Assembly: GCF_027125355.1 (NCBI RefSeq) | Contig: NZ_CP114052.1 | Location: 558,001-622,000, forward strand | Length of the DNA: 64,000 bases | From: Peptostreptococcus equinus | GTDB taxonomy: Bacteria > Bacillota > Clostridia > Peptostreptococcales > Peptostreptococcaceae | Reading direction: 5' to 3' | Part shown: positions 11,190 through 36,136 of the stretch, one piece after another | How positions within the stretch are numbered: the first letter of the stretch is position 1 | Layout of the letters: each line of letters opens with the position of its first letter | The notes under the pieces: model-generated | Databases searched by the model: none | What the model was told of the DNA's origin: nothing | The model's input: the letters and a program-made list of their open reading frames with translations, nothing else | Program-made: the position numbers and the translations under genes

Positions 11190-12257
11190 ATTTTCGTTTG
11201 GCGTAAAAATGGCGTTATTTAATTTATTTACAATTTCTGTCTTTTTGTTTGGATATAGATGCCCATAAGTATTCCAAGTGGTATCTACTTTTTCGTGTCC
11301 TAATCTATCCGCTAAGGTCATTACATTTATATCTAAATTTATTAATAAGCTTGCGTGAGAATGTCTAAAATCATGTATTCTTATTTGTGGTAAGCCAGCT
11401 TCATTCGCATATCTTTTTTTAGCATTATCTAATTTACTTTTTGAGAATGTAAAAACTCTATCATCATCTTCAACACCATATATTGTAGATATATATACTT
11501 TTAACATATCCATAATAGTCTTGGGCATACCTATAACGCGATTTCCTTTTTTTGTCTTAGGGGGATTTAGGTATTCAACTTGTTTTATAACTACATATGT
11601 TTTTGATATGGAAATTGTATTATTTTCAAAATCAAAATCACTAGGTGTTAATGCAAAAAACTCACCTATTCTGATACCACTATAAAATAATATCATAAAA
11701 GCTAATTTGTATTCTTCACTATCAGCATAACTTATAAATTCATTAAACTGTTCTAAAGTCCAAAACTTCATTTCATCGGCTTTACTTTTGCCTATTGTTC
11801 CAGCCAACTTTACGGGGTTATTTTGTAGCCCATAGTAAGAAACAGCATAATTCATAACAGCACTTAATTGATTATTAACTGTCTTAGTAAATGTGTTAGA
11901 GAAATTATGATCTAATATTTCATTTTGCCATTTTCTAACAACGATTGGCGATATTTCTTTAATTGGCATATCGGAGAAGAATGGTGTTACATGCTTTCTT
12001 AAGACGTATGATTTATTTTCTAGTGTGGATTGTCTTATTCTATTCTTCATGTCCTCTAAATAAGCTTCTACGAGGTTAGAAAAGGTAATATCTGTAGTTG
12101 GGTTAAGGCTGTTTAGAAAATTCCTTTCCCATTCCTGAGCTTCTTTTTTTGTATCAAAACCTCTTTTTTGCTTTCTTGCTGATTTGCCAGTTACGGGGTC
12201 TTTATAAGACAATTGAACTCTCCACTTACGTGCTTTGTTTTCATCCTTTAAAACCAT
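11181..12257 (-). CDS. int: Tyrosine recombinase, phage integrase
   Basis: 358 aa, catalyses integration at the universal stress gene. Residues 1-50 (WRVQLSYKDPVTGKSARKQK) form an AP2-like arm-binding domain, 55-150 a SAM-like core-binding domain, and 165-350 the catalytic domain with Arg in YSGIRIGE, the HDFRHSH box, GHEKVDTTWNTYGH and the nucleophile Tyr in that last motif. AAGGAG stands 8 bases before the ATG. It sits directly inside attL and its stop overlaps the terminator stem. Candidate arm sites lie at 11198-11216, within its own 3' end, and at 51076-51094. Confidence 0.96.
   Translation of the reverse strand: MVLKDENKARKWRVQLSYKDPVTGKSARKQKRGFDTKKEAQEWERNFLNSLNPTTDITFSNLVEAYLEDMKNRIRQSTLENKSYVLRKHVTPFFSDMPIKEISPIVVRKWQNEILDHNFSNTFTKTVNNQLSAVMNYAVSYYGLQNNPVKLAGTIGKSKADEMKFWTLEQFNEFISYADSEEYKLAFMILFYSGIRIGEFFALTPSDFDFENNTISISKTYVVIKQVEYLNPPKTKKGNRVIGMPKTIMDMLKVYISTIYGVEDDDRVFTFSKSKLDNAKKRYANEAGLPQIRIHDFRHSHASLLINLDINVMTLADRLGHEKVDTTWNTYGHLYPNKKTEIVNKLNNAIFTPNENKK
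11198..11216 (+). repeat. Candidate left integrase arm sites (11-bp spaced TTGGCG pair)
   Basis: TTGGCGTA at 11198 and ATGGCGTT at 11209 are direct repeats one 11-bp turn apart, 60 bases inside attL. A matching pair TTGGCGCA x2, also 11 bp apart, lies 102 bases inside attR. Confidence 0.5.
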
Positions 12258-13584: not shown

Positions 13585-14526
13585 CTAATTAATTGGTGTA
13601 AAGCTATCCACGACTTTACCAACTATATTGAAATACTTTCCGTTTTCTGGTGGTATTTCAATAATGATATTTTTATATGATTTGTTTATTGAAACTAGTC
13701 TAAATCTATCCCCATCATTATATAATTTCTTAACGTATGATTTTCCATCATAATCAATTACATACACATCTCCATTTACATTATCATATCCTGATTTTAC
13801 CAAAATTACATCTCCATCATTATATTTTGGATCCATACTGTCTCCAGTAACTAGAGTGGCAAAATCATACTCGTGTAAATCCGTTCTGTCCGTTGTATAA
13901 GGAATCTGTTCGTTGTCCGAGTATAAATACCCAACCCCAGCAGCAACTTTTTCTGTTACGTATACTGTTGTTAGTTCTCCAAAATAACGGTCATCAGATA
14001 ATTCCTGGAGTGTTTTTCTAACTTCACTAATTTCTATATTTATGCCCGCTATAGACTTAAGTTTTTGAATTCTTAATAAAGTATCCTCCATAGAATCATA
14101 TAACTCCGCAGGGTCCACATAGTAGACTTCATTCGTCTCAGTATTTTCTATTTGCATACTATCCACAATAAATTCGCCAAAATTGAAACTATCTGGGTCA
14201 AATTGATACCCTAAGTCTATAAGGGTATCAATAATTTTGTTTTTATATTTATTTTCCTTTAGTCTTTTTTCGTATTCATTTTCTACTATTTGGAAATTTA
14301 AAATCTCATCTATTGTGGTCTCGAAATAATCTGCAACTCTTTTTAGTGAAGTGACCTTGGGTGTTTCTGTATCTCTCTCCCATTTTGAAAGTTTTCCTTT
14401 AGTGAAATTTTCATCTGGATACAGTTTATTTAAATTTTCCGCTAGTTTTTCTAGTGTGAGTTCATGTAACAATCTAAAATGTTTTAACGCCCCACCTATT
14501 GAAATTTCTTGATTCAAGTTATTCAC
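13585..14526 (-). CDS. CI/LexA-like phage repressor (HTH_XRE plus S24 peptidase)
   Basis: 313 aa. The N-terminal XRE helix-turn-helix (residues 12-75: LTLEKLAENLN...TKGKLSKWERD) should bind the operators in the adjacent divergent region. The C-terminal S24 domain (about 190-313) contains Ser in TGDSMDPKYNDGD, Lys in KSYVKKLY, and an Ala-Gly cleavage candidate in VTEKVAAGVGYL, so RecA-stimulated self-cleavage is expected on DNA damage. The middle 80-180 is a longer linker than in lambda CI. It is transcribed away from the cro-like gene from a promoter overlapped by an operator. Confidence 0.93.
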   Translation of the reverse strand: MNNLNQEISIGGALKHFRLLHELTLEKLAENLNKLYPDENFTKGKLSKWERDTETPKVTSLKRVADYFETTIDEILNFQIVENEYEKRLKENKYKNKIIDTLIDLGYQFDPDSFNFGEFIVDSMQIENTETNEVYYVDPAELYDSMEDTLLRIQKLKSIAGINIEISEVRKTLQELSDDRYFGELTTVYVTEKVAAGVGYLYSDNEQIPYTTDRTDLHEYDFATLVTGDSMDPKYNDGDVILVKSGYDNVNGDVYVIDYDGKSYVKKLYNDGDRFRLVSINKSYKNIIIEIPPENGKYFNIVGKVVDSFTPIN

Positions 14527-22434: not shown

Positions 22435-25059
22435 ATGGAATTAAGACCTTATCAGAATGAAGCAAAAGAAAAAGTATTAGAACAATGGAATCAGGGAGTG
22501 CGTAAAACACTCCTTGTTTTGCCAACTGGATGCCATGAAGAGAATCAAGAAATATTAATGTCTGATGGCTCATTGAAAAAGATAAAAGATATTAATATAG
22601 GTGAACAAGTTATGGGAGCAGATGGACTTCCAAGAAATATTTTATTCAAGCAGAAAGGTACTAAATTATTATACAAAGTTCAACCAGTAAAAGGTGAAAG
22701 TTTTTTAGTAACTGAAGATCATAAGCTTACCCTTGTAAGGACCAATGAAAAAAGCAGAAATATATATCCTTCAGATAAGCTTGGAGGTCAAATTATTGAT
22801 GTAAGTATAAAAGAATGGCTAAGTTGGAGTAAGAACAAAAAACATATACATAAATTAATTAGATCAGGTTTAATAAAAAACTTTGGATTTAATAACGGAC
22901 ATATAATTTCCCCCTATTTCTTAGGCATTTTACTAGGAGATGGAAATCTAGTAAACTCAATATCTGTTACCACAATGGATGATGAAGTTGTAAGTGAAAT
23001 AAAAAATCAATGTTTAAGGTATGATATGACATATTCTATTGAACCATCCGGTAAAGCGAATACATATATATTTAAAAGTGGAGAGCTTGGATGCAAGGGC
23101 AGTTTACTTCACAGACAATTAAAGGAGCTAGGTCTCAGAGGTAAAGGCAGTTATGAAAAATTTATACCACATAATTATAAAGCTTCAAATTACATTAATA
23201 GACTTGAAATATTAGCAGGATTAATAGATACAGATGGTAGTGCTACAAATGGAGGATACGATTTTGTTTCGGCATCTAAGCAGTTAAGTAATGATGTCGC
23301 ATTTATTGCTAGGTCTTTAGGGTTGGCTGCATATGTTAAGAAGTGTAAGAAAAGATGTAAGGATTTTGAAGGTATTTACTACAGAGTAGGTATCAGTGGA
23401 GACTGTTCTATAATTCCTTGTAGAGTAAGTCACAAGAAAGTTAATAAAAGAAGACAAATAAAAGATGTAAAAAGAACTGGATTTACAGTTTTAGAATATG
23501 GAATAGGCAACTATGTTGGAATAACAGTTGATGTAGATAATAGATATTTAATGGGTGATTTTACAATAACTCATAATTGCGGGAAGACTATAGTTTTTAG
23601 CAAGGTAATAGAAGATGTTGTAAAAAGTGGCGATAGAGTATTAATGTTAGCGCATAGAGGGGAGTTATTAGATCAAGCAGCAGATAAGTTGGATAAAGCT
23701 ACTGGACTAAAATGTGCAGTTGAAAAAGCGGAAGATAGTTGCTTAGGTAGTTTTTATAGAGTTGTTGTAGGCTCAGTTCAATCACTTATGAGACCTAAAA
23801 GGCTTAATAAATTTGATAAAGATTACTTTGACACAATAGTTATAGATGAAGCACATCACTGTATATCAGACGGTTACCAAAGAGTATTAGAACACTTTGA
23901 TAGTGCTAAGGTGCTAGGAGTAACAGCCACGCCGGACAGAGGGGATATGAAGAATCTTGGTTCGTACTTTGAGTCACTTGCCTATGAATATACTTTACCT
24001 AAGGCAATTAAAGAAGGTTTTTTATCACAAATTAAGGCACTTACTATTCCTCTTAAGTTAGATTTATCAGGAGTAAGTCAACAAGCAGGAGACTTTAAGG
24101 CTAGTGAAATTGGAACAGCATTAGATCCATATTTGGAGCAAATTGCTGATGAAATGGTAAAGTATTGTAGTGATAGAAAAACAGTAGTATTTTTACCTCT
24201 TATTAAGACATCACAAAAGTTTACTAGAATACTTCAAGAAAAAGGATTTAGAGCTGCAGAGGTTAATGGGGATTCAGAAAATAGGGGTCAAATTTTAGAG
24301 GACTTTGACAACGATAGATACAATGTATTATGCAATTCAATGCTCCTTACTGAAGGTTGGGATTGCCCTAGTGTCGATTGCATTATAGTGCTTAGACCAA
24401 CAAAGGTTAGGTCTTTATATAGCCAAATGGTAGGACGTGGAACAAGACTACATCCAGGTAAGGAAGATTTGCTTGTATTAGATTTTTTGTGGCATACAGA
24501 AAGACATGAGTTGTGTCATCCAGCTTCACTTATTGCACCCAATGAAGAAGTATCAAAGGCAATGACTAAAATAATTGAGGAATCAGGAAATCCTCAGGAC
24601 TTAGAAGAAGTTGAAAAGATGGCGGAAGAAGAAGTGATTCTTCAAAGAGAAGAAGCATTGGCCAAACAGCTTGAAGAAATGAGAAAGCGTAAAAGAAAGT
24701 TGGTTGATCCACTTCAATTTGAAATGTCAATTAATGCTGAGGACTTAGTTAATTATGTTCCGGCATTTGGTTGGGAAATGGGACCAGCCAGTGAAAAACA
24801 AATAAAGACATTGGAAAAATTGGGAATATTCCCAGACCAAGTAGATAATGCTGGTAAAGCTAAGATGTTACTTGATAGATTGGATTCAAGAAGAAAAGAA
24901 GGACTTACTACACCTAAACAAATTAGATTTTTAGAACAAAGAGGATTTAAAAATGTAGGTATGTGGGAGTTTGATTCAGCAAGAAAACTTATAGATAGAA
25001 TTGCTGGTAATGGGTGGAAAATACCAAAGGATATTGATGTAAAAGGATATAAAGGATAG
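22435..25059 (+). CDS. SF2 DEAD/DEAH-box helicase interrupted by an intein in Walker A
   Basis: 874 aa precursor. Residues 1-32 give ELRPYQNEAKEKVLEQW (Q-motif-like) and LPTG; the intein occupies 33-381; the host protein resumes with CGKT, restoring LPTGCGKT. Downstream motifs are VIDEAHHC (about 468), GVTATPDRGD, FLPLIKTS, NSMLLTEGWDCPSVD and QMVGRGTRLHP. The spliced helicase would be 525 aa. It belongs to the phage replication/recombination set (ATPase, DUF669 before; primase after). Without splicing the ATP-binding site is split, so activity depends on intein removal. Confidence 0.93.
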   Translation: MELRPYQNEAKEKVLEQWNQGVRKTLLVLPTGCHEENQEILMSDGSLKKIKDINIGEQVMGADGLPRNILFKQKGTKLLYKVQPVKGESFLVTEDHKLTLVRTNEKSRNIYPSDKLGGQIIDVSIKEWLSWSKNKKHIHKLIRSGLIKNFGFNNGHIISPYFLGILLGDGNLVNSISVTTMDDEVVSEIKNQCLRYDMTYSIEPSGKANTYIFKSGELGCKGSLLHRQLKELGLRGKGSYEKFIPHNYKASNYINRLEILAGLIDTDGSATNGGYDFVSASKQLSNDVAFIARSLGLAAYVKKCKKRCKDFEGIYYRVGISGDCSIIPCRVSHKKVNKRRQIKDVKRTGFTVLEYGIGNYVGITVDVDNRYLMGDFTITHNCGKTIVFSKVIEDVVKSGDRVLMLAHRGELLDQAADKLDKATGLKCAVEKAEDSCLGSFYRVVVGSVQSLMRPKRLNKFDKDYFDTIVIDEAHHCISDGYQRVLEHFDSAKVLGVTATPDRGDMKNLGSYFESLAYEYTLPKAIKEGFLSQIKALTIPLKLDLSGVSQQAGDFKASEIGTALDPYLEQIADEMVKYCSDRKTVVFLPLIKTSQKFTRILQEKGFRAAEVNGDSENRGQILEDFDNDRYNVLCNSMLLTEGWDCPSVDCIIVLRPTKVRSLYSQMVGRGTRLHPGKEDLLVLDFLWHTERHELCHPASLIAPNEEVSKAMTKIIEESGNPQDLEEVEKMAEEEVILQREEALAKQLEEMRKRKRKLVDPLQFEMSINAEDLVNYVPAFGWEMGPASEKQIKTLEKLGIFPDQVDNAGKAKMLLDRLDSRRKEGLTTPKQIRFLEQRGFKNVGMWEFDSARKLIDRIAGNGWKIPKDIDVKGYKG
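22531..23577 (+). other. Intein with LAGLIDADG homing endonuclease domain (349 aa)
   Basis: It begins with Cys33 (block A, CHEENQEILMSDG), has block B VTEDHKL (T-X2-H), endonuclease blocks ILLGDGN (near residue 166) and LAGLIDTDG (260-268), then block F YVGITVDVDNRYLMGD and ends THN with Cys as the +1 extein residue. All splicing residues (Cys1, His-Asn, +1 Cys) are present, so splicing should work. Both LAGLIDADG-type motifs keep their acidic residue, so the homing endonuclease may be active. Confidence 0.95.
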
Positions 25060-29884: not shown

Positions 29885-30058
29885 ATGAAGCACAGAGATT
29901 TAATTAAACTTCTTGAAAGTAATGGATTTTATTACAAACGTGCAGGTGGGAATCATGATATATACACAAACGGGACAATATCAGAACCCATACCAAGGCA
30001 TAAAGAAATAAATGAAATGCTAGCAAGGAAAATTATTAAGAAGTTAGGGCTTAAATAG
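29885..30058 (+). CDS. hicA: HicA toxin (mRNA interferase)
   Basis: 57 aa, MKHRDLIKLLESNGFYYKRA then GGNHDIYTNG with the catalytic His (residue 24) and IPRHKEIN before the C-terminal helix. HicA cleaves mRNA through a dsRBD-like fold. AAGGAGA lies 4 to 10 bases before the ATG. hicB follows after 46 bases, giving the toxin-first order common for HicAB. Confidence 0.93.
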   Translation: MKHRDLIKLLESNGFYYKRAGGNHDIYTNGTISEPIPRHKEINEMLARKIIKKLGLK

Positions 30059-30104
30059 CCCTAACGGATTTATTCATATAGTTTATATATTGGAGGGATG
30101 AAGA

Positions 30105-30509
30105 ATGAGAAAAGAACTAAAATTAGCATATCCTGTTTTGATGAAAAAAACAGATGACGGGTATTATGTGGAAATACCTGACTTTGATATCGCAACACAA
30201 GGAAGTAATGTAGCAGAAGCTATGGAAATGGCTAGAGATGCCATAGGTTTGATGGGAATTGATTATCAAGATGATAAAAAAGATTTGCCTGAACCATATT
30301 CAATAAAATTTAATGAAGATGAATTTGATATTGAAACATTGGTAGATATCAATTTAGCTGAATACAGAAGAAAATTAGAGAATAAATCAGTTAAGAAAAA
30401 TTGTACTATTCCGTATTGGTTAAATGAAAAAGCTGAGAAAGAGGGAATAAATTTTTCTAAATTGTTGCAAGAAGCTGTTGCAAAAGCATTGGGAGTTTCT
30501 TTAAAGTAG
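30105..30509 (+). CDS. hicB: HicB antitoxin
   Basis: 134 aa. N-terminal RNase-H-like HicB domain (LAYPVLMKKTDDGYYVEIPD and QGSNVAEAMEMARDAIGLM) and a C-terminal ribbon-helix-helix (CTIPYWLNEKAEKEGINFSK) that would bind the palindromes upstream of hicA. Neutralises HicA and represses the operon. GGAGGG before ATG. The pair sits between the early operon and the terminase genes, flanked by terminators. Confidence 0.93.
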   Translation: MRKELKLAYPVLMKKTDDGYYVEIPDFDIATQGSNVAEAMEMARDAIGLMGIDYQDDKKDLPEPYSIKFNEDEFDIETLVDINLAEYRRKLENKSVKKNCTIPYWLNEKAEKEGINFSKLLQEAVAKALGVSLK

Positions 30510-30680: not shown

Positions 30681-31058
30681 GTGAATAAAAAAATTGAAAA
30701 ATGTGCAATATTAATGGTTTCAACTGATTTAACTCAGAAACAAATTGCCGAAGAGTTAAATGTGTCTGTACAGACGATAATCAATTGGAAAAAGAAAGAT
30801 GAATTCATTGAATTCAAAGATGACTATCAAAGAAAATATTTAAATAACCTAGCTGCTAAAGCTATTAGAACTATGGATAAGTTGCTTACATCAGACAGCG
30901 ACCAGGTCAGATATAATGCAGCAAAGGATATATTGGATAGAACGGGATATAAGCCTACTGAAAAACAAAATATAAATATGAGTGGTAGCTTAGCCAATCC
31001 ATATGAAGCTTTAACAACAGAACAGCTATTAAAACTAGCTGGTGATGATGATGGATAG
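30681..31058 (+). CDS. terS: Terminase small subunit
   Basis: About 125 aa. N-terminal HTH (TDLTQKQIAEELNVSVQTII and NWKKKDEF), then an oligomerising helical part (AAKAIRTMDKLLTSDSDQVR) and DRTGYKPTEKQ, as in SPP1-type small terminases that recognise pac/cos. GTG 30681 is preferred over TTG 30675 because AGAGGTG is then 8 bases upstream. The large subunit overlaps its 3' end. Confidence 0.88.
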   Translation: MNKKIEKCAILMVSTDLTQKQIAEELNVSVQTIINWKKKDEFIEFKDDYQRKYLNNLAAKAIRTMDKLLTSDSDQVRYNAAKDILDRTGYKPTEKQNINMSGSLANPYEALTTEQLLKLAGDDDG

Positions 31059-32436
31059 GGATTTAATAAAGTTGGGTGCTAAGATAGAACTTGCAAAACG
31101 TGGGTTCTTTTTTTATTGTAATTTAAAAGCGCCTGATTTTTACAAAAAAGATAGAAAGTTCTTAGTTGATTTGTGTAATGAATTACAAGCGTTTTATGAA
31201 CAAAGTGGTTATGATGTTTTAATTATAAATGAGCCACCTCGCCACGGGAAAAGTAGGACTGCTGGATGTTTTGTTGAATGGATTTTAGGTGAACATCCTG
31301 AAGAAAAAATAATGACTGGATCATACAATGAGACTCTATCAACTGTGTTTTCAAAGAATGTTAGAAATACAATTCAAGAAGAAAAAGCCGATAAGAATAA
31401 AGTTGTTTACACAGATGTTTTTCCAGATAGAGCAATAAAAAAAGGTGATGGATCTATGAACCTTTGGTCACTTGAAGGTGGATACAATAACTACTTGGCT
31501 ACTTCCCCAGGAGGAACTGCAACAGGATTTGGTGCAAGTATTTTAATCATAGATGACTTAATAAAAAATGCTGAAGAAGCCTACAACGAATCAATAAAGG
31601 AAAAACACTGGGATTGGTTTGTTAATACTATGCTATCTAGACTTGAAGAGGGTGGCAAAATCATAATAATAATGACTAGGTGGGCTAGTGATGATTTGGC
31701 GGGCAAAGCATTAGAAGAATTGCCAGAGTTGGGTTATAAAGTGAAGCACGTAAATATGAAAGCTATGCAAGATGATGGATCAATGTTGTGTGATGAAATA
31801 TTATCCAAGGAATCTTTTTTACTAAAGACAAAGGCTATGGGAGAGGACATTGCTTCAGCAAATTACCAGCAAGAGCCAATTGATCTTAAAGGTAAGTTAT
31901 ATGAGCTTAAAACTTATGAAGAATTACCAACGTTTAAGCATATATACAATTATACAGATACGGCTGATAAGGGCGACGATTATTTGTGTAGCATAGATTA
32001 TGGCGTATCTTTTGATAATGAAGCTTATATCATTGATGTGTTGTACACAAAAGACGATATGGAAATTACAGAAAAAGCACAAGCCGAAATGATGCATAAA
32101 GATAAGGTAAATAAAGCGAGAATAGAATCAAATAATGGTGGCGGAGTATATGCTAGAAATGTTGAAAGAATAATGAAAGTCGAGCTAAATACTAATCACA
32201 CAGTATTTGATGCATTTCATCAATCTAATAATAAACAGGCTAGAATACTTTCAAATTCATCATGGGTGAATCAGCATATATATGTGCCTACTACTTGGCG
32301 TAATAAATGGCCTGAATTTGCTAAAGATGTAATTAAGTATCAGCGTGAAGGTAAAAATAAGCATGATGACTGTGCAGACGCAATAACAGGTATTGCAGAG
32401 ACATTATCCAAGCCACCAACATATTCATTTGATTAG
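31051..32436 (+). CDS. terL: Terminase large subunit
   Basis: 461 aa. Walker A EPPRHGKSRT (about residues 66-75), Walker B ILIIDDLIKNAEEAYN, and a C-terminal RNase-H-like nuclease opening with CSIDYGVSFD and further acidic residues (RIESNNGGG, KHDDCADAI). It packages DNA into the prohead. Several ATGs stand in a row at 31045-31051; the choice is uncertain by a few codons. It overlaps terS by 8 bases. Confidence 0.95.
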   Translation: MDRDLIKLGAKIELAKRGFFFYCNLKAPDFYKKDRKFLVDLCNELQAFYEQSGYDVLIINEPPRHGKSRTAGCFVEWILGEHPEEKIMTGSYNETLSTVFSKNVRNTIQEEKADKNKVVYTDVFPDRAIKKGDGSMNLWSLEGGYNNYLATSPGGTATGFGASILIIDDLIKNAEEAYNESIKEKHWDWFVNTMLSRLEEGGKIIIIMTRWASDDLAGKALEELPELGYKVKHVNMKAMQDDGSMLCDEILSKESFLLKTKAMGEDIASANYQQEPIDLKGKLYELKTYEELPTFKHIYNYTDTADKGDDYLCSIDYGVSFDNEAYIIDVLYTKDDMEITEKAQAEMMHKDKVNKARIESNNGGGVYARNVERIMKVELNTNHTVFDAFHQSNNKQARILSNSSWVNQHIYVPTTWRNKWPEFAKDVIKYQREGKNKHDDCADAITGIAETLSKPPTYSFD

Positions 32437-32447
32437 GAGGTGAATAA

Positions 32448-33908
32448 ATGTTTAATTGGTTAAAAAGGGGGGTGAACAAGCTGAATGATTTAATAAATAA
32501 ACCTGAGGAAAAAACTTCAGAAAATATGACATATTTAGAATATCTGGTAAATAACTTTAAAACTTCTAAAGAAAGAGAAAATCAGATTATAGGCGAAGAG
32601 TACTACAAAGGTAATCATGATATTTTAAATCGTAAAAAATACATGATTTTAAAAGATGGCACAAAGAAAGAATTGTTGAATACTCCTAACAATAAGAGAG
32701 TGGATAACCAGTATGCTATTGCCGTTGATAAAAAGAAAAACTATATGCTAGGTAAAGCACCAACAATTAAATCAGATAATGAAAAGTTTGATAATTTGAT
32801 TGAGCCTATATTTAATCATAGGTTTATGAAATCACTTAAGAACATATTAAAGAGTTCTCTAAACTGTGGAATCGCTTATGTGTATATTTATATTGATAGT
32901 AACTCACAAATAAAATTTAAGTTATTTAAATCATATGAAATATATCCAGTTTGGAAAGACGAGGAACACAACGAGCTGAATTTTGTTATTAGATTATATG
33001 CGATTCCAGAGTTCATTGCTGGTAAAGAGGTTATAAATGAATATGCTGAAGTATATGACAAAGATAAGGTTACAAGATATAAAGTTAATGGTAAATCATT
33101 ACTTAAGCTTGAAGAGCTGAATTATTTGGTTGATTCAGAAGGCAAAGCATATAACTGGAATGATAGAGTGCCTATTGTAGCATTTAAATATAATGATGAT
33201 GAAATACCACTAATCAATAAAATAAAGTCTCTACAGGATGCAATAAATGAAATATTATCTGATTACAACAACAATATGCAACAGGATGCTAGAAATACTA
33301 TTCTTGTAATTACGAATTATGATGGTGCAAATTTAGAAGATTTTAGGGAGAATTTAGCAACTGCGGGAGCTGTAAAAGTTCAATCTGACGGTGGAGTTGA
33401 CACATTAAGCATTGAGGTTAATTCAGATAATTATAAGTCGATATTAGATATACTTAAGAAAGCTTTGATAGAAAATGCCAAGTCATTTGATGCTAAAGAT
33501 GAAAGACTTGGTGGCAATCCTAATCAGATGAATATACAATCAATGTATTCTGATATAGATCTTGATTCTAATGATATTGAAGCAGAATTTAAGGCATCAT
33601 TTGAACAGATGACAGATTTTGTAAAGATGTTTTTGGAAGCTACAACAGACTACACAGCTACTGATAAAGATAAAATTGATATTATCTTTAATAAAGATGT
33701 TCTGATAAATGAATCACAGGTTATAACAGATATACAAGCAAGTACAGGACTGTTATCAACTAGGACATTACTTGAAAATCATCCATATATTGATGATCCA
33801 GCTGAAGAAGAGAAAAGATTGAAGCAGGAGCAAGAAAATAATAAGCCAAAGAAAATTGAAGATAATTTTTCTATAGGCGGTGATAATAATGCCGAAGAAG
33901 AAAACTAA
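32448..33908 (+). CDS. Portal protein (SPP1 gp6 family)
   Basis: 486 aa dodecameric vertex protein. TGEEYYKGNHDI-like IIGEEYYKGNHDILNRK, NKRVDNQYAIAVDKKKNYML and the acidic region LNDSDIDLDSNDIEAEFKAS type segment near 370-390 are typical of phage_prot_Gp6. Strong AGGAGGTGA before the ATG. The C-terminus is charged and its last 20 bases overlap the minor head gene, an arrangement seen in SPP1-like phages. Confidence 0.92.
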   Translation: MFNWLKRGVNKLNDLINKPEEKTSENMTYLEYLVNNFKTSKERENQIIGEEYYKGNHDILNRKKYMILKDGTKKELLNTPNNKRVDNQYAIAVDKKKNYMLGKAPTIKSDNEKFDNLIEPIFNHRFMKSLKNILKSSLNCGIAYVYIYIDSNSQIKFKLFKSYEIYPVWKDEEHNELNFVIRLYAIPEFIAGKEVINEYAEVYDKDKVTRYKVNGKSLLKLEELNYLVDSEGKAYNWNDRVPIVAFKYNDDEIPLINKIKSLQDAINEILSDYNNNMQQDARNTILVITNYDGANLEDFRENLATAGAVKVQSDGGVDTLSIEVNSDNYKSILDILKKALIENAKSFDAKDERLGGNPNQMNIQSMYSDIDLDSNDIEAEFKASFEQMTDFVKMFLEATTDYTATDKDKIDIIFNKDVLINESQVITDIQASTGLLSTRTLLENHPYIDDPAEEEKRLKQEQENNKPKKIEDNFSIGGDNNAEEEN

Positions 33909-35490
33909 GAATCAACAGTATTGGGAAAAAAGAGCATTAGAACTTGAAGCAATAAAGAATAAAAAAGTTGAAAAACAATTAAGTGAGCTTGAAACAATAA
34001 ATGCTGAAATTTCTAGAAGAATGAAAAGGCAAATAAACTACTGGGTTAGTAGATTTGCTAAAGATAATGGTCTAACATATGCAGCAGCACAGCAGAAATT
34101 AACTCCAGCTGAGATTGAAGAATATAGACTTGATTTACAGACATATATCAAATATGCTAGCCAATTAGATGATCAGGTACCCGAAGAATGGTTACTGATG
34201 GTTAGAAATGCAAGTACAACTTATCATTTGACAAGGTTAGAAGCTCTTAAGATAGCCTTGATTAATGAAGTTAACGACTTTATCTATAAAGAGAATAATG
34301 CTATATTTGAATTTCTTGAGGAACTATATAAAGACACTTATTATAGGCAAACATATGAAATAGCAAAAGGTGTTGATGCTACTGTAAATTTGTTTCATCC
34401 TAATGAATATAAGGTTAAGTTACTAATCAAGAAACCTTGGACTGATGATGGTATAGAGTTTTCAGAAAGACTTTGGGGGCCTCATAGAGAAAAAATTGTA
34501 GAGGAACTACACAAGGCACTTGAAGAGTCACTTAGAAAAGGTGATAATGCTACTAAAATGGCTGAAGATATAGCAGAAAAGTTTGAGGTTAGAAAAGATC
34601 ATGCTGAAGCTTTATTACATACAGAATCAGCACGTATTGATGAAGAGGCAAGATACGAAAACCTAAAGGATTTAGAGGTAGAAAAATATATTATTGTTGC
34701 CACACTGGACCATAAAACTTCAAGCATATGCAGAAAAGTGGACGGTAAGGTATTTGAGTTATCTAAGAAAGAAGTTGGAGTAAACTATCCCCCATTTCAT
34801 GTAAGATGTAGAACAACAGTAGCGCCGTATATTGATGAAGAATATGGATTAGGGCAAAGAGCTGCAAGGGATAAAAATGGTAAAACTATTTATGTTCCTG
34901 AAAATATGACTTATCCAGAATTTCATAGAAAATATATTGCTGGAGATAAAGAGTATAGCAATGTAGAAAAAGCGTGGAAGAATAGATTCTCCGATAAAAA
35001 ACAACACGAAAAGTATAAAAATGCAGGTGTTGAAGTACCTAAAAGCTTTGAAGATTATCAGAAAATGAAGTATAATAAAAGTACAGACAGAGATATTAAA
35101 TTAAGATCAGTTGATTATGCAAGACGTAATAAACTTAAGAATAACCCAAAATTAAGATTGCCTAACGTTGAAACCGCCACAATAGATAAAAATAAGTTTG
35201 AGAAATATCTATTTGGTGGAGACAATGAAAAAGGGCTCACTAAAGGTAGATTGATTGAAGAAAAATTGGGATATAACATAAATAATTATAAATATTTTGA
35301 AAAAGAAATTCTTTTGAGGTCAAGAGATTACCCAGCTACATTTAAGGGTGAAAATCAACATGGAAAAAGATATGAACAGCAAATCATATTTTATAATAAA
35401 AATAAAGAGCCGGTAAATTTATTAGTGGCATGGCTTGAAAATAATGGTAAAACACATATGACTACAGCATATATTACGGAGGTGAAGTAG
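33889..35490 (+). CDS. MuF/SPP1 gp7-like minor head protein with C-terminal DUF6883-like domain (candidate polymorphic toxin)
   Basis: 533 aa. Residues 1-310 are the head morphogenesis part; the MuF core with ATLDHKTSSICRKVDG and YPPFHVRCRTT lies near 265-310. After a linker, residues 424-533 read LPNVETATIDKNKFEKYLFG, then GRLIEEKLGY, KRYEQQIIFY and NLLVAWLENNGKTHMTTAYI, which matches my recollection of DUF6883, a C-terminal domain of polymorphic toxins. The neighbouring 54-aa gene resembles DUF4926, often paired with it. ATG 33889 is preferred to the GTG at 33880. Toxin activity is inference; the head role is family knowledge. Confidence 0.85.
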   Translation: MPKKKTKNQQYWEKRALELEAIKNKKVEKQLSELETINAEISRRMKRQINYWVSRFAKDNGLTYAAAQQKLTPAEIEEYRLDLQTYIKYASQLDDQVPEEWLLMVRNASTTYHLTRLEALKIALINEVNDFIYKENNAIFEFLEELYKDTYYRQTYEIAKGVDATVNLFHPNEYKVKLLIKKPWTDDGIEFSERLWGPHREKIVEELHKALEESLRKGDNATKMAEDIAEKFEVRKDHAEALLHTESARIDEEARYENLKDLEVEKYIIVATLDHKTSSICRKVDGKVFELSKKEVGVNYPPFHVRCRTTVAPYIDEEYGLGQRAARDKNGKTIYVPENMTYPEFHRKYIAGDKEYSNVEKAWKNRFSDKKQHEKYKNAGVEVPKSFEDYQKMKYNKSTDRDIKLRSVDYARRNKLKNNPKLRLPNVETATIDKNKFEKYLFGGDNEKGLTKGRLIEEKLGYNINNYKYFEKEILLRSRDYPATFKGENQHGKRYEQQIIFYNKNKEPVNLLVAWLENNGKTHMTTAYITEVK

Positions 35491-35491
35491 C

Positions 35492-35656
35492 ATGGATATA
35501 AAACAATATGATACAGTTTTATTAAAAGATGGCAGAGAAGCAGCTATTATAGAAGTGTTTAGTAAAACAGAATTTTTGGCAGATATCGGAGATGATCCAT
35601 CTACTTGGGAAACTGTTGATATTACACTAGATGATATAGAAAAAGTGGTGATGTAA
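35492..35656 (+). CDS. DUF4926-like protein, candidate immunity protein
   Basis: 54 aa: MDIKQYDTVLLKDGREAAII, FLADIGDDPSTWETVDIT. The pattern 'D.VLLKDGREA.IVEVF...ADVG..P..W.TIDIT...I' is that of DUF4926, which is commonly encoded right after toxins with DUF6883-like ends. It starts one base after the MuF stop codon, with GGAGGTGA upstream, and its stop overlaps the next start (TAATG). Translational coupling to the toxin gene fits an immunity protein. Confidence 0.75.
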   Translation: MDIKQYDTVLLKDGREAAIIEVFSKTEFLADIGDDPSTWETVDITLDDIEKVVM

Positions 35657-35967
35657 TGGATAATTTAAAAATTGTGTATAAAATACTAGTAGGTATTGAA
35701 GCTTCTATGGATAGTAATATTTTTGATGGCACTTTTTTAGAAGCACTAAAAATAAGTGAAGAAAGAAAAAACAGGATACTTCAGTCAATGATTGATGATG
35801 ACCTTATTAGTGGTTTTAAAAGAATTAACTATGCCGGTGGATATGGTTTTAAGGCTATGGAACCTAGACTAACAATAAAAGGTATGGAATTTCTTCAAGA
35901 AAATTCAACAATGCAAAAAATTAAAAATGGTTTAAAAGATGTTAAGGATATTACACCATTTATATAA
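35656..35967 (+). CDS. YjcQ-like winged-helix protein
   Basis: 103 aa. KIVYKILVGIEASMDSNIFD, DDLISGFKRINYAGGYGF, PRLTIKGMEFLQENSTMQKI match the YjcQ family (small phage/prophage winged-helix protein, function unknown). Its start overlaps the immunity gene stop by one base and a terminator follows immediately, so the trio MuF-immunity-YjcQ ends a transcription unit. Confidence 0.8.
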   Translation: MDNLKIVYKILVGIEASMDSNIFDGTFLEALKISEERKNRILQSMIDDDLISGFKRINYAGGYGFKAMEPRLTIKGMEFLQENSTMQKIKNGLKDVKDITPFI

Positions 35968-36001
35968 GCACTTTAGTGAATAAATCTAGGGTGCTTTTTT
36001 A
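35966..36001 (+). terminator. Terminator between minor head and scaffold genes
   Basis: AAGCAC/GTGCTT arms with inner TTTAG/CTAGG pairs and six T. The 130 bases up to the scaffold gene hold no other clear element. Confidence 0.7.
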
Positions 36002-36136
36002 ATATGTAAAATGACCTAAGATAAGTCAATAAACTGTCTTTTTTTAATGCAAAAAATTACTCTAGCTTGGAGAATAAATAAAGCACACTACATTACTGGA
36101 CCACCAGAATAAAAAGGAAAGTAGGAGGTAAATATT

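What the first reader, a model, noticed from the sequence alone, without database searches (positions are those of the whole stretch)
33889..35967. Candidate phage-borne polymorphic toxin: MuF head protein with DUF6883-like C-terminus, followed by a DUF4926-like immunity gene
The minor head protein has an ordinary SPP1 gp7/MuF part and then a separate 110-residue C-terminal module (residues 424-533) that is not needed for head assembly. The next gene starts one base after its stop, is 54 aa, and looks like DUF4926, a family often found beside such toxin ends; a YjcQ-like gene is coupled to it. A toxin built into the capsid could be delivered with DNA or act on competing cells, with the lysogen protected.
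Basis: partly seen in the sequence, partly recalled or inferred. Interest (0 to 1): 0.85.

Follow-up and report, generated by a model that had tools for sequence, protein, structure and literature searches.

The report
Phage head protein with swappable toxin tip
A prophage's head protein carries an exchangeable tip that looks like a bacterial toxin, followed by the tip's likely antidote gene, and the same tip-antidote pair is used by many other bacterial toxin systems, so two unnamed protein families become testable as a toxin and its antidote.

Summary
MuF head gene 33889-35490 ends in a DUF6883 domain (Pfam E 8.9e-13); a 54-aa gene starts one base later, then YjcQ. The toxin reading is well supported by comparison; activity is untested. 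(1) DUF6883 also ends proteins with MuF2, CdiA-type, LXG, Hcp, Rhs, S-pyocin, PT-HINT and PrsW parts. (2) 112 of 113 scanned loci have a gene of the 54-aa family directly behind; 90 of 102 such proteins match DUF4926, though 3 of 9 plasmid loci have none. The window's own 54-aa protein misses Pfam but fits a profile built without it (E 4e-14). (3) Relatives keep the MuF body to about residue 396 and swap tip plus small gene; tips include Ntox50, ADP-ribosyltransferase and TNT. Tip and 54-aa gene move as a cassette between two arms: the MuF end, and YjcQ with a terminator. YjcQ recurs behind many different tips but follows only 4 of 19 tipped relatives and none of the 113 DUF6883 loci. MuF toxins are a known kind (PMC5576092). 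Structure prediction never finished.

The parts
33889..35490 (+). MuF minor head protein with C-terminal DUF6883 tip (533 aa)
   Evidence: PF04233 res 206-311, PF21814 res 423-529, TIGR01641, PHROG minor head
33889..35076 (+). conserved MuF body (residues 1-396), shared with homologs that carry other tips or none
34962..35076 (+). left homology arm of the cassette (MuF residues ~359-396), also found in front of other tips and in orphan loci
   Evidence: DNA matches 70-78% identical over this stretch in L183, L184, L189; alignment
35155..35487 (+). DUF6883 toxin-like tip (residues 423-533); K436, Y440, K452 invariant in the 91 tips compared
35492..35656 (+). 54-aa DUF4926-like predicted immunity gene, one base after the MuF stop
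35656..35967 (+). YjcQ family gene (103 aa), recurrent third gene and right arm of the cassette
   Evidence: PF09639 1.8e-18; limits
35966..35996 (+). hairpin followed by a run of T, terminator-like, closing the cassette; sequence kept in the five cassettes aligned
   Evidence: window copy folded (z -3.18); alignment; the pattern scan did not list it
32448..33908 (+). SPP1-type portal gene directly upstream (context)
   Evidence: PF05133 E 7.4e-80
31042..32436 (+). large terminase gene (context)
   Evidence: PF03237 24.1 bits, cut-off 22
11250..11756 (-). integrase domain match, temperate-phage context
   Evidence: PF00589 match at G000:569250-569756

Best explanation
The gene is a MuF-family polymorphic toxin of a temperate phage. 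The MuF body (to about residue 396) is a head protein made next to the portal; the 110-residue DUF6883 tip is a toxin domain that acts in the cytosol; the 54-aa DUF4926-like protein (probably an SH3-like barrel) is its immunity protein and protects the producing cell or lysogen by binding the tip. Tip and immunity gene are exchanged as one cassette between phages by recombination in a left arm (end of the MuF body) and a right arm (YjcQ gene plus terminator). YjcQ is an accessory gene under strong constraint in this group of MuF operons, most likely a regulator. Shown by comparison here: domain identities, gene coupling, swapping, arm positions, sharing of the tip with other toxin systems. Inferred: toxicity, neutralisation by binding, delivery with phage DNA, YjcQ's role. 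My guess for the activity, with weak support (about 0.4), is a small metal-independent nuclease; K436, Y440 and K452 are invariant, W515 nearly so.
For: Of 27 proteins grouped as phage-type, 10 carry PF04233 and 8 PF06152 besides DUF6883; of 41 others 4 carry DUF637 and one each PT-HINT, Pyocin_S, T6SS_HCP, LXG, Fil_haemagg_2, RHS_repeat, PrsW (positions seen singly, except Pyocin_S). In the 113 loci the match ends 0-16 codons before the stop. Partner gene: 112 of 113 loci (107 by strict position, 5 with a longer start; L151 is cut by the contig end); 90 of 102 distinct partners hit PF16277. Swaps: 19 of 19 MuF homologs with an extension have an ORF of 52-118 aa at -17 to +14 bp; 0 of 8 short MuFs have one of at most 120 aa within 20 bp. 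Tips of homologs: Ntox50, ADPrib_exo_Tox, TNT. Mosaic: against L188 the portal is 27% and the body 34% identical, but tip 61%, 54-aa protein 54%, YjcQ 91%; DNA similarity covers 34962-36004 only. dN/dS tip 0.279/1.352, 54-aa 0.312/1.028, YjcQ 0.072/1.286. Tip and partner distances correlate, r 0.562 over 91 pairs, best of 2000 shuffles 0.184. Integrase in the window.
Against: No activity, binding or structure result (AlphaFold job not returned). The window's 54-aa protein has no Pfam match. Of 9 plasmid loci opened (15 records matched), 3 (Methylobacterium, Agrobacterium, Streptomyces) show no DUF4926-like gene behind DUF6883, and in two of them DUF6883 lies inside a longer protein, not at its end; the 113 loci were picked by patterns from close relatives, so their 112 of 113 does not speak for the distant family. 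At least 29 of the 41 long non-phage ORFs show no recognised N-terminal domain (many were cut by contigs or by me to 620 aa). The window tip has N446 where 85% of tips have H, and G443/G453 where N/A are usual, so it could be weak or altered. For the 26 phage pairs the distance correlation (0.445) does not exceed the best shuffle (0.473), and the larger one is confounded by common descent. The partner HMM was built from the same downstream ORFs; only the Pfam count is independent. No profile similarity of the tip to Ntox50 or another MuF tip group; nothing credible in the PDB by sequence.
Confidence: 0.82

Rival explanations
1. DUF6883-DUF4926 is in essence an intracellular toxin-antitoxin module; on the MuF protein it acts inside the host cell (maintenance, or exclusion of superinfecting phage) rather than being injected.
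For: 34 of 113 loci have DUF6883 ORFs of at most 165 aa without room for a delivery domain, with the same partner gene behind; annotated stand-alone pairs in Nitrosococcus and Stanieria plasmids.
Against: In phage, CdiA-type, LXG, Hcp and Rhs proteins the domain is the end of a protein of a known delivery type; relatives put known polymorphic-toxin tips in the same place. Some of the 34 short ORFs are cut by contig ends or broken.
Confidence: 0.12
2. The C-terminus is a structural or DNA-packaging extension of the head protein and the small genes are assembly chaperones.
For: It lies on a head protein encoded next to the portal.
Against: Homologs of the same body lack it (the genome's own second MuF, 399 aa, L192; 8 short MuFs, of which L160 and L163 have stops inside the match), others have Ntox50, ADP-ribosyltransferase or TNT domains instead, and the same domain occurs in non-phage proteins.
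Confidence: 0.03
3. YjcQ, not the 54-aa protein, is the immunity protein, or both are.
For: It is coupled to the 54-aa gene and recurs behind MuF toxins. A prophage toxin with two immunity proteins is published (Bxa, abstract of PMC11699363).
Against: A YjcQ HMM finds no YjcQ in any of the 113 DUF6883 loci (108 have at least 700 bp after the tip), while the 54-aa family is there in 112. YjcQ stays 92% identical behind a different tip in L189.
Confidence: 0.05

Closest known systems
MuF polymorphic toxins of temperate phages (Jamet et al. 2017, PMC5576092)
   Same: MuF1 domain (PF04233) gene directly behind the portal gene, C-terminal extension shared with other polymorphic toxins, small ORF directly downstream, temperate phage
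   Different: The tip is DUF6883, a name found in no paper of the held library; the third gene YjcQ and the cassette arms are not described there (YjcQ: 0 occurrences in the main text; supplements not seen)
MuF toxin tips Ntox50, ADPrib_exo_Tox, TNT in homologs of this MuF body
   Same: Same place behind the same kind of body, followed by a small gene
   Different: Unrelated tip domains and different small genes
Apk2 MuF toxins with adenosine 3'-pyrophosphokinase tip (abstract of PMC12226406)
   Same: MuF N-terminus, C-terminal toxin, immunity proteins, one class of which works by protein-protein interaction
   Different: Different enzymatic domain; activity there is experimentally shown
CdiA-type, LXG, Hcp and Rhs proteins carrying DUF6883
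   Same: Same C-terminal domain and a gene of the same small family behind it
   Different: Different N-terminal part; not phage head proteins

Membership tests
MuF polymorphic toxin (PMC5576092) | MuF domain encoded directly downstream of the portal gene | tested here: met
   PF04233 E 1e-17; portal PF05133 E 7.4e-80 in the overlapping upstream gene
MuF polymorphic toxin (PMC5576092) | C-terminal extension shared with other polymorphic-toxin families and swapped among homologs | tested here: met
MuF polymorphic toxin (PMC5576092) | small ORF (<150 aa) directly downstream | tested here: met
   54 aa, one base after the stop; 19 of 19 extended homologs against 0 of 8 short ones at gap <=20 bp and <=120 aa (30 loci examined, 3 broken or partial ones left out)
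MuF polymorphic toxin (PMC5576092) | temperate phage | tested here: met
   integrase match inside the window; repressor-like ORF 13585-14526 read (not family-searched)
MuF polymorphic toxin (PMC5576092) | toxic activity neutralised by the immunity protein | not testable with these tools
   needs expression experiments
DUF6883 (PF21814) | score above the curated cut-off | tested here: met
   48.9 bits against 27; 54.2 bits for the tip alone
DUF4926 (PF16277), for the 54-aa protein | score above the curated cut-off | tested here: not met
   no match at E<=1; related only through others: 90 of 102 partners match PF16277, partner HMM hits it at E 4e-14
YjcQ (PF09639) | score above the curated cut-off | tested here: met
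   66.9 bits against 23.3
BECR-fold RNase toxins | fold of the tip | tested here: inconclusive
   no profile similarity to four Ntox50-type tips, a family that PMC3482391 predicts as BECR (passage); structure job not returned

The most novel reading that the evidence does not exclude
One group of MuF toxins travels as a three-part cassette: variable tip, variable immunity gene, constant YjcQ plus terminator. YjcQ is a working part of these operons whatever the tip (regulator, silencer or loading factor), not just hitch-hiking DNA. The cassettes recombine between phages through the MuF-end and YjcQ arms and leave remnants in host chromosomes, where orphan immunity genes are kept as protection against incoming capsid-borne toxins. 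DUF6883-DUF4926 is one widespread, so far unnamed toxin-immunity pair in this traffic.
Probability: 0.35. Interest if true: 0.7.

Novelty: new variant of a known kind. Interest (0 to 1): 0.55.

Why it matters
Two families that carry only DUF numbers become a concrete toxin-immunity hypothesis that can be tested in one experiment and would apply to proteins with nine kinds of N-terminal part (MuF1, MuF2, CdiA-type, LXG, Hcp, Rhs, S-pyocin, PT-HINT, PrsW). The mosaic also shows how a capsid-borne toxin tip is exchanged with its antidote, and host loci with orphan pieces of such cassettes may be evidence that these toxins really reach cells, the open question about MuF toxins.

Tried and rejected
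Tried without result: tblastn of the tip alone in the phage collection (no match); the search for related loci with the full MuF protein (none confirmed); a 9-sequence alignment too divergent for pattern search; PDB sequence searches with the tip and its profile (none; best E 0.52, not credible) and with the 54-aa protein and its profile (weak hits only, L21e and Tudor SH3-like among them); PADLOC (nothing for the window proteins; one weak E 0.0033 match of a relative to PtuA, ignored); profile comparison of DUF6883 with Ntox50 and another MuF tip group (no similarity). Structure prediction of the tip stayed in the queue; the second job was not accepted, so no fold search was made.

Rejected: the structural-extension reading (homologs without the tip); YjcQ as the immunity gene. 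A promoter-like site at 35048-35076 is the best-scoring in the region and its hexamers are largely kept in 9 aligned left arms, but the scan found 28 sites against 26.7 expected and the DNA is coding, so I make no claim.

Results against my reading: no DUF4926-like gene in 3 of 9 plasmid loci. YjcQ in none of 113 DUF6883 loci and behind only 4 of the 19 tipped homologs. 5 of 18 YjcQ loci in relatives lie elsewhere, and one (L229) is behind an ADP-ribosyltransferase ORF without a MuF match. 25 of 69 viral YjcQ loci have no MuF by my first HMM; a wider one recovers 4, 17 have another ORF of at least 200 aa upstream, 4 have none. The MuF HMMs were trained on loci that partly recur in the viral set (L222 and L288 are the same contig by length), and the 28 tip clusters are BLAST clusters of the last 130 residues, so an upper bound on unrelated tips. 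Two of the 8 short MuFs (L160, L163) have stops inside the match; without them 0 of 6. Two partner ORFs (L047, L050) are 227 aa, not small. Rows dropped before counts: L153, L176, L177 (broken or partial frames); L039, L087, L097 (stops inside the match) and L151 (only residues 4-42 matched) from the tip alignment, though they stay in the 113; near-identical tips were collapsed (86 of 113 kept; 91 pairs with the window).
Full report
What is there. Window 33889-35490 (+) encodes a 533-aa minor head protein directly behind an SPP1-type portal gene. Pfam puts Phage_Mu_F at residues 206-311 (E 1e-17) and DUF6883 at 423-529 (E 8.9e-13, above the cut-off); TIGR01641 and PHROG agree on a minor head protein. 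The next gene (35492-35656, 54 aa) starts one base after the stop, and YjcQ (35656-35967, PF09639 E 1.8e-18) overlaps the stop of the 54-aa gene by one base. An integrase match lies in the window.

The tip is a shared polymorphic-toxin domain. Scans gave 80 genome loci (the best 80 of 90 confirmed) and 33 viral loci. In these 113 the DUF6883 match ends 0-16 codons before the end of the frame (three have stops inside the match and L151 is a short partial match). Of 27 proteins that I grouped as phage-type, 10 carry PF04233 and 8 PF06152, the MuF1 and MuF2 domains of PMC5576092. Of 41 other long ORFs, 4 carry DUF637 (CdiA-type hemagglutinin) and one each PT-HINT, Pyocin_S, T6SS Hcp, LXG, Fil_haemagg_2, RHS repeat and PrsW; at least 29 of the 41 show no named N-terminal domain, and many were cut. 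Domain order was seen one by one for LXG (L061), PT-HINT (L078), Rhs (L079), PrsW (L066), Hcp (L042), DUF637 (L046, L057, L069, and L048) and Fil_haemagg_2 (L075). Fifteen plasmid records matched and nine were opened: a Rhizobium leguminosarum plasmid has the domain at the end of an 8.1-kb hemagglutinin gene, an Anoxybacillus plasmid at the end of a minor capsid protein behind portal and terminase genes; in Methylobacterium and Streptomyces it lies inside a longer protein. 34 of the 113 ORFs have at most 165 aa, so the domain also occurs as a small stand-alone gene. Record titles span Pseudomonadota, Bacillota, Actinomycetota, Cyanobacteriota, Planctomycetota, Bacteroidota, Chloroflexota and others.

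It has a partner. Downstream ORFs were listed for the 113 loci. 102 distinct downstream proteins plus the window's were scanned: 90 of the 102 match DUF4926 at E<=0.01. An HMM from these proteins, without the window, finds the partner directly behind the tip in 112 of 113 loci (107 by strict position, 5 where a longer start was called; L151 is cut by the contig end) and four further ORFs elsewhere in loci that also have the adjacent one (the HMM comes from these same ORFs, so the Pfam count is the independent one). Among 285 window ORFs it picks the 54-aa gene at E 4e-14, next 0.47. The alignment shows the window protein as a short form lacking the loop of the longer DUF4926 proteins. The 11 DUF6883 matches above cut-off in 398 genomes of the phylum (the window's included; 12 matched at E<=0.001) also have such a gene behind them, read by eye; of the nine plasmid loci six do and three (L036, L037, L038) do not. 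The 113 loci were picked by patterns from close relatives, so universality is not claimed for the distant family. Tip and partner distances correlate (r 0.562, 91 pairs, best of 2000 shuffles 0.184); for the 26 phage pairs r is 0.445, best shuffle 0.473. Shared ancestry inflates this measure.

Swapping. The MuF body (query residues 1-404) was sought in 147 genomes including the window's: 38 have it. Of 30 loci examined, 19 proteins continue for more than 100 residues beyond the body, and all 19 have an ORF of 52-118 aa starting -17 to +14 bp from the stop; of 8 short MuFs none has an ORF of at most 120 aa within 20 bp (two of the 8 have stops inside the match); three broken or partial loci were left out. 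BLAST similarity to the window stops between residues 365 and 406 in 18 of the 19 proteins listed; the exception, L188, has the same tip. Tips include Ntox50 (L186, L201), ADP-ribosyltransferase (L195), TNT (L225) and several without a Pfam name; Ntox50 also sits on a MuF2 body (L222). The window genome's second MuF (L192, 399 aa) has no tip; the next ORF, 209 aa, starts 84 bp on. [quoted passage not shown]

The cassette and its arms. Against a same-genus phage (L188) portal and MuF body are 27% and 34% identical, but the linker is 68%, the tip 61%, the 54-aa protein 54% and YjcQ 91%; DNA similarity found by blastn runs only from 34962 to 36004. Against L182 the reverse holds: DNA similarity runs through the MuF body to 35076 (body 66%), is lost over tip and immunity, and returns in the last third of YjcQ (35863-35999). 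L189 (body 33%) and the orphan locus L184 match only at 34962-35079 and about 35618-36014 (L184 with a further short stretch), with another tip and small gene between. So the exchanged unit is bounded by about 115 bp at the end of the MuF body and by the YjcQ gene with a terminator-like hairpin at 35966-35996, whose sequence is kept in the five copies aligned, after which similarity fades (only the window's copy was folded). YjcQ is not passive DNA: dN/dS against L188 is 0.072/1.286 and against L189 0.056/1.562, against 0.279/1.352 for the tip and 0.312/1.028 for the 54-aa gene.

YjcQ as recurrent third gene, and its limits. In the 147 genomes there are 18 YjcQ loci (19 matches in 14 genomes): 10 directly behind a MuF1 or MuF2 protein and a small gene (Pfam; L182 by BLAST), one behind an ADP-ribosyltransferase ORF without MuF match (L229), two in orphan cassettes (L184, L223), five elsewhere. 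In viral contigs, 83 YjcQ loci were taken (3; the best 80 of 129); 69 have at least 2 kb upstream, and in 44 of these a MuF-like gene ends 159-620 bp before YjcQ, the room of one small gene; the 49 MuF-bearing loci among all 83 fall into 28 BLAST clusters by their last 130 residues, an upper bound on unrelated tips. Of the 25 without, 4 match a wider MuF profile. On the other side, YjcQ follows only 4 of the 19 tipped homologs, and a YjcQ HMM finds none in the 113 DUF6883 loci, 108 of which have at least 700 bp after the tip. YjcQ is therefore tied to one group of MuF operons, whatever their tip, and not to DUF6883. The paper searches for MuF, YjcQ with prophage, DUF6883/DUF4926 and their Pfam numbers listed no title or abstract that describes this; the library holds open-licence papers only, and of most listed papers I saw only the listing.

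Orphans in host chromosomes. In another genome of the same genus (G398) two contigs without head genes nearby (L183, L184) hold left-arm pieces, an alternative tip (L184), repeated immunity-like genes and YjcQ pieces beside ORFs that I read, without a search, as housekeeping genes. In G092 (L029) a relative of the 54-aa gene (58% identical) sits in an array with a YjcQ piece (HMM E 8.7e-7; a second piece by eye). I read these as leftovers of cassette exchange, kept perhaps as protection; that is inference.

How it probably works. SPP1 gp7, the best studied MuF protein, is in the capsid in one to two copies in a complex with the portal (passage of PMC5576092), so a tip could enter a recipient with DNA, or be freed at lysis. 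In the producing cell the 54-aa protein would bind the tip. What the tip does is not known. It is small and has invariant K436, Y440 and K452 (window numbering) and a nearly invariant W515, while a histidine present in 85% of tips is N446 here. Seeing no metal-binding motif by eye, I favour a small nuclease (about 0.4), but profile comparison with Ntox50 gave nothing and the structure was not obtained.

Literature seen. PMC5576092: outline, passages, first part of Results. PMC11699363 and PMC12226406: outline and abstract. PMC3482391: passages found by terms. Nothing else was read. Pfam names such as PT-HINT or TNT come from the calls; the reading of DUF637/Fil_haemagg as CdiA-type, LXG as type VII and Hcp as type VI is general knowledge.

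Noticed in passing
window 22435-25059 (+): The phage helicase-like ORF (874 aa) is interrupted at its Walker A motif by an in-frame insert with LAGLIDADG-like motifs, probably an intein with a homing endonuclease (read from the translation).
   Followed up: no
window 29885-30509 (+): HicA-like (57 aa) and HicB-like (134 aa) genes in tandem just upstream of the terminase genes, a second possible toxin-antitoxin pair in the prophage (read from the translations).
   Followed up: no
L183, L184 (G398): Chromosomal remnants of MuF cassettes: left-arm pieces, immunity-like genes in more than one copy, YjcQ pieces, without head genes nearby.
   Followed up: partly
L029 7894-11889 (G092): Array with one 61-aa DUF4926-like gene, three copies of an unrelated 60-aa gene family and YjcQ-like pieces; looks like an orphan immunity array.
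   Followed up: partly
L244, L248, L249, L251, L254, L278, L280: Very long phage ORFs (658-850 aa) end 172-692 bp before YjcQ; they may be portal or head proteins with toxin tips of their own. One DUF6883 protein of alignment A5 carries a Phage_portal domain.
   Followed up: no
L123 2790-5324: A viral contig protein with a PBECR3 nuclease-like domain (residues 581-706) directly before its DUF6883 tip.
   Followed up: no
L036, L038 (plasmids of Methylobacterium and Streptomyces): Proteins of about 500 aa with DUF6883 in the middle, a further C-terminal part and no DUF4926-like gene behind: a different use of the domain.
   Followed up: no
L019 and L027 (G381, G120): DUF6883-DUF4926 loci near CRISPR-like repeat arrays (repeated ORF motifs); the DUF6883 frame of G120 (L011) is broken.
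   Followed up: no
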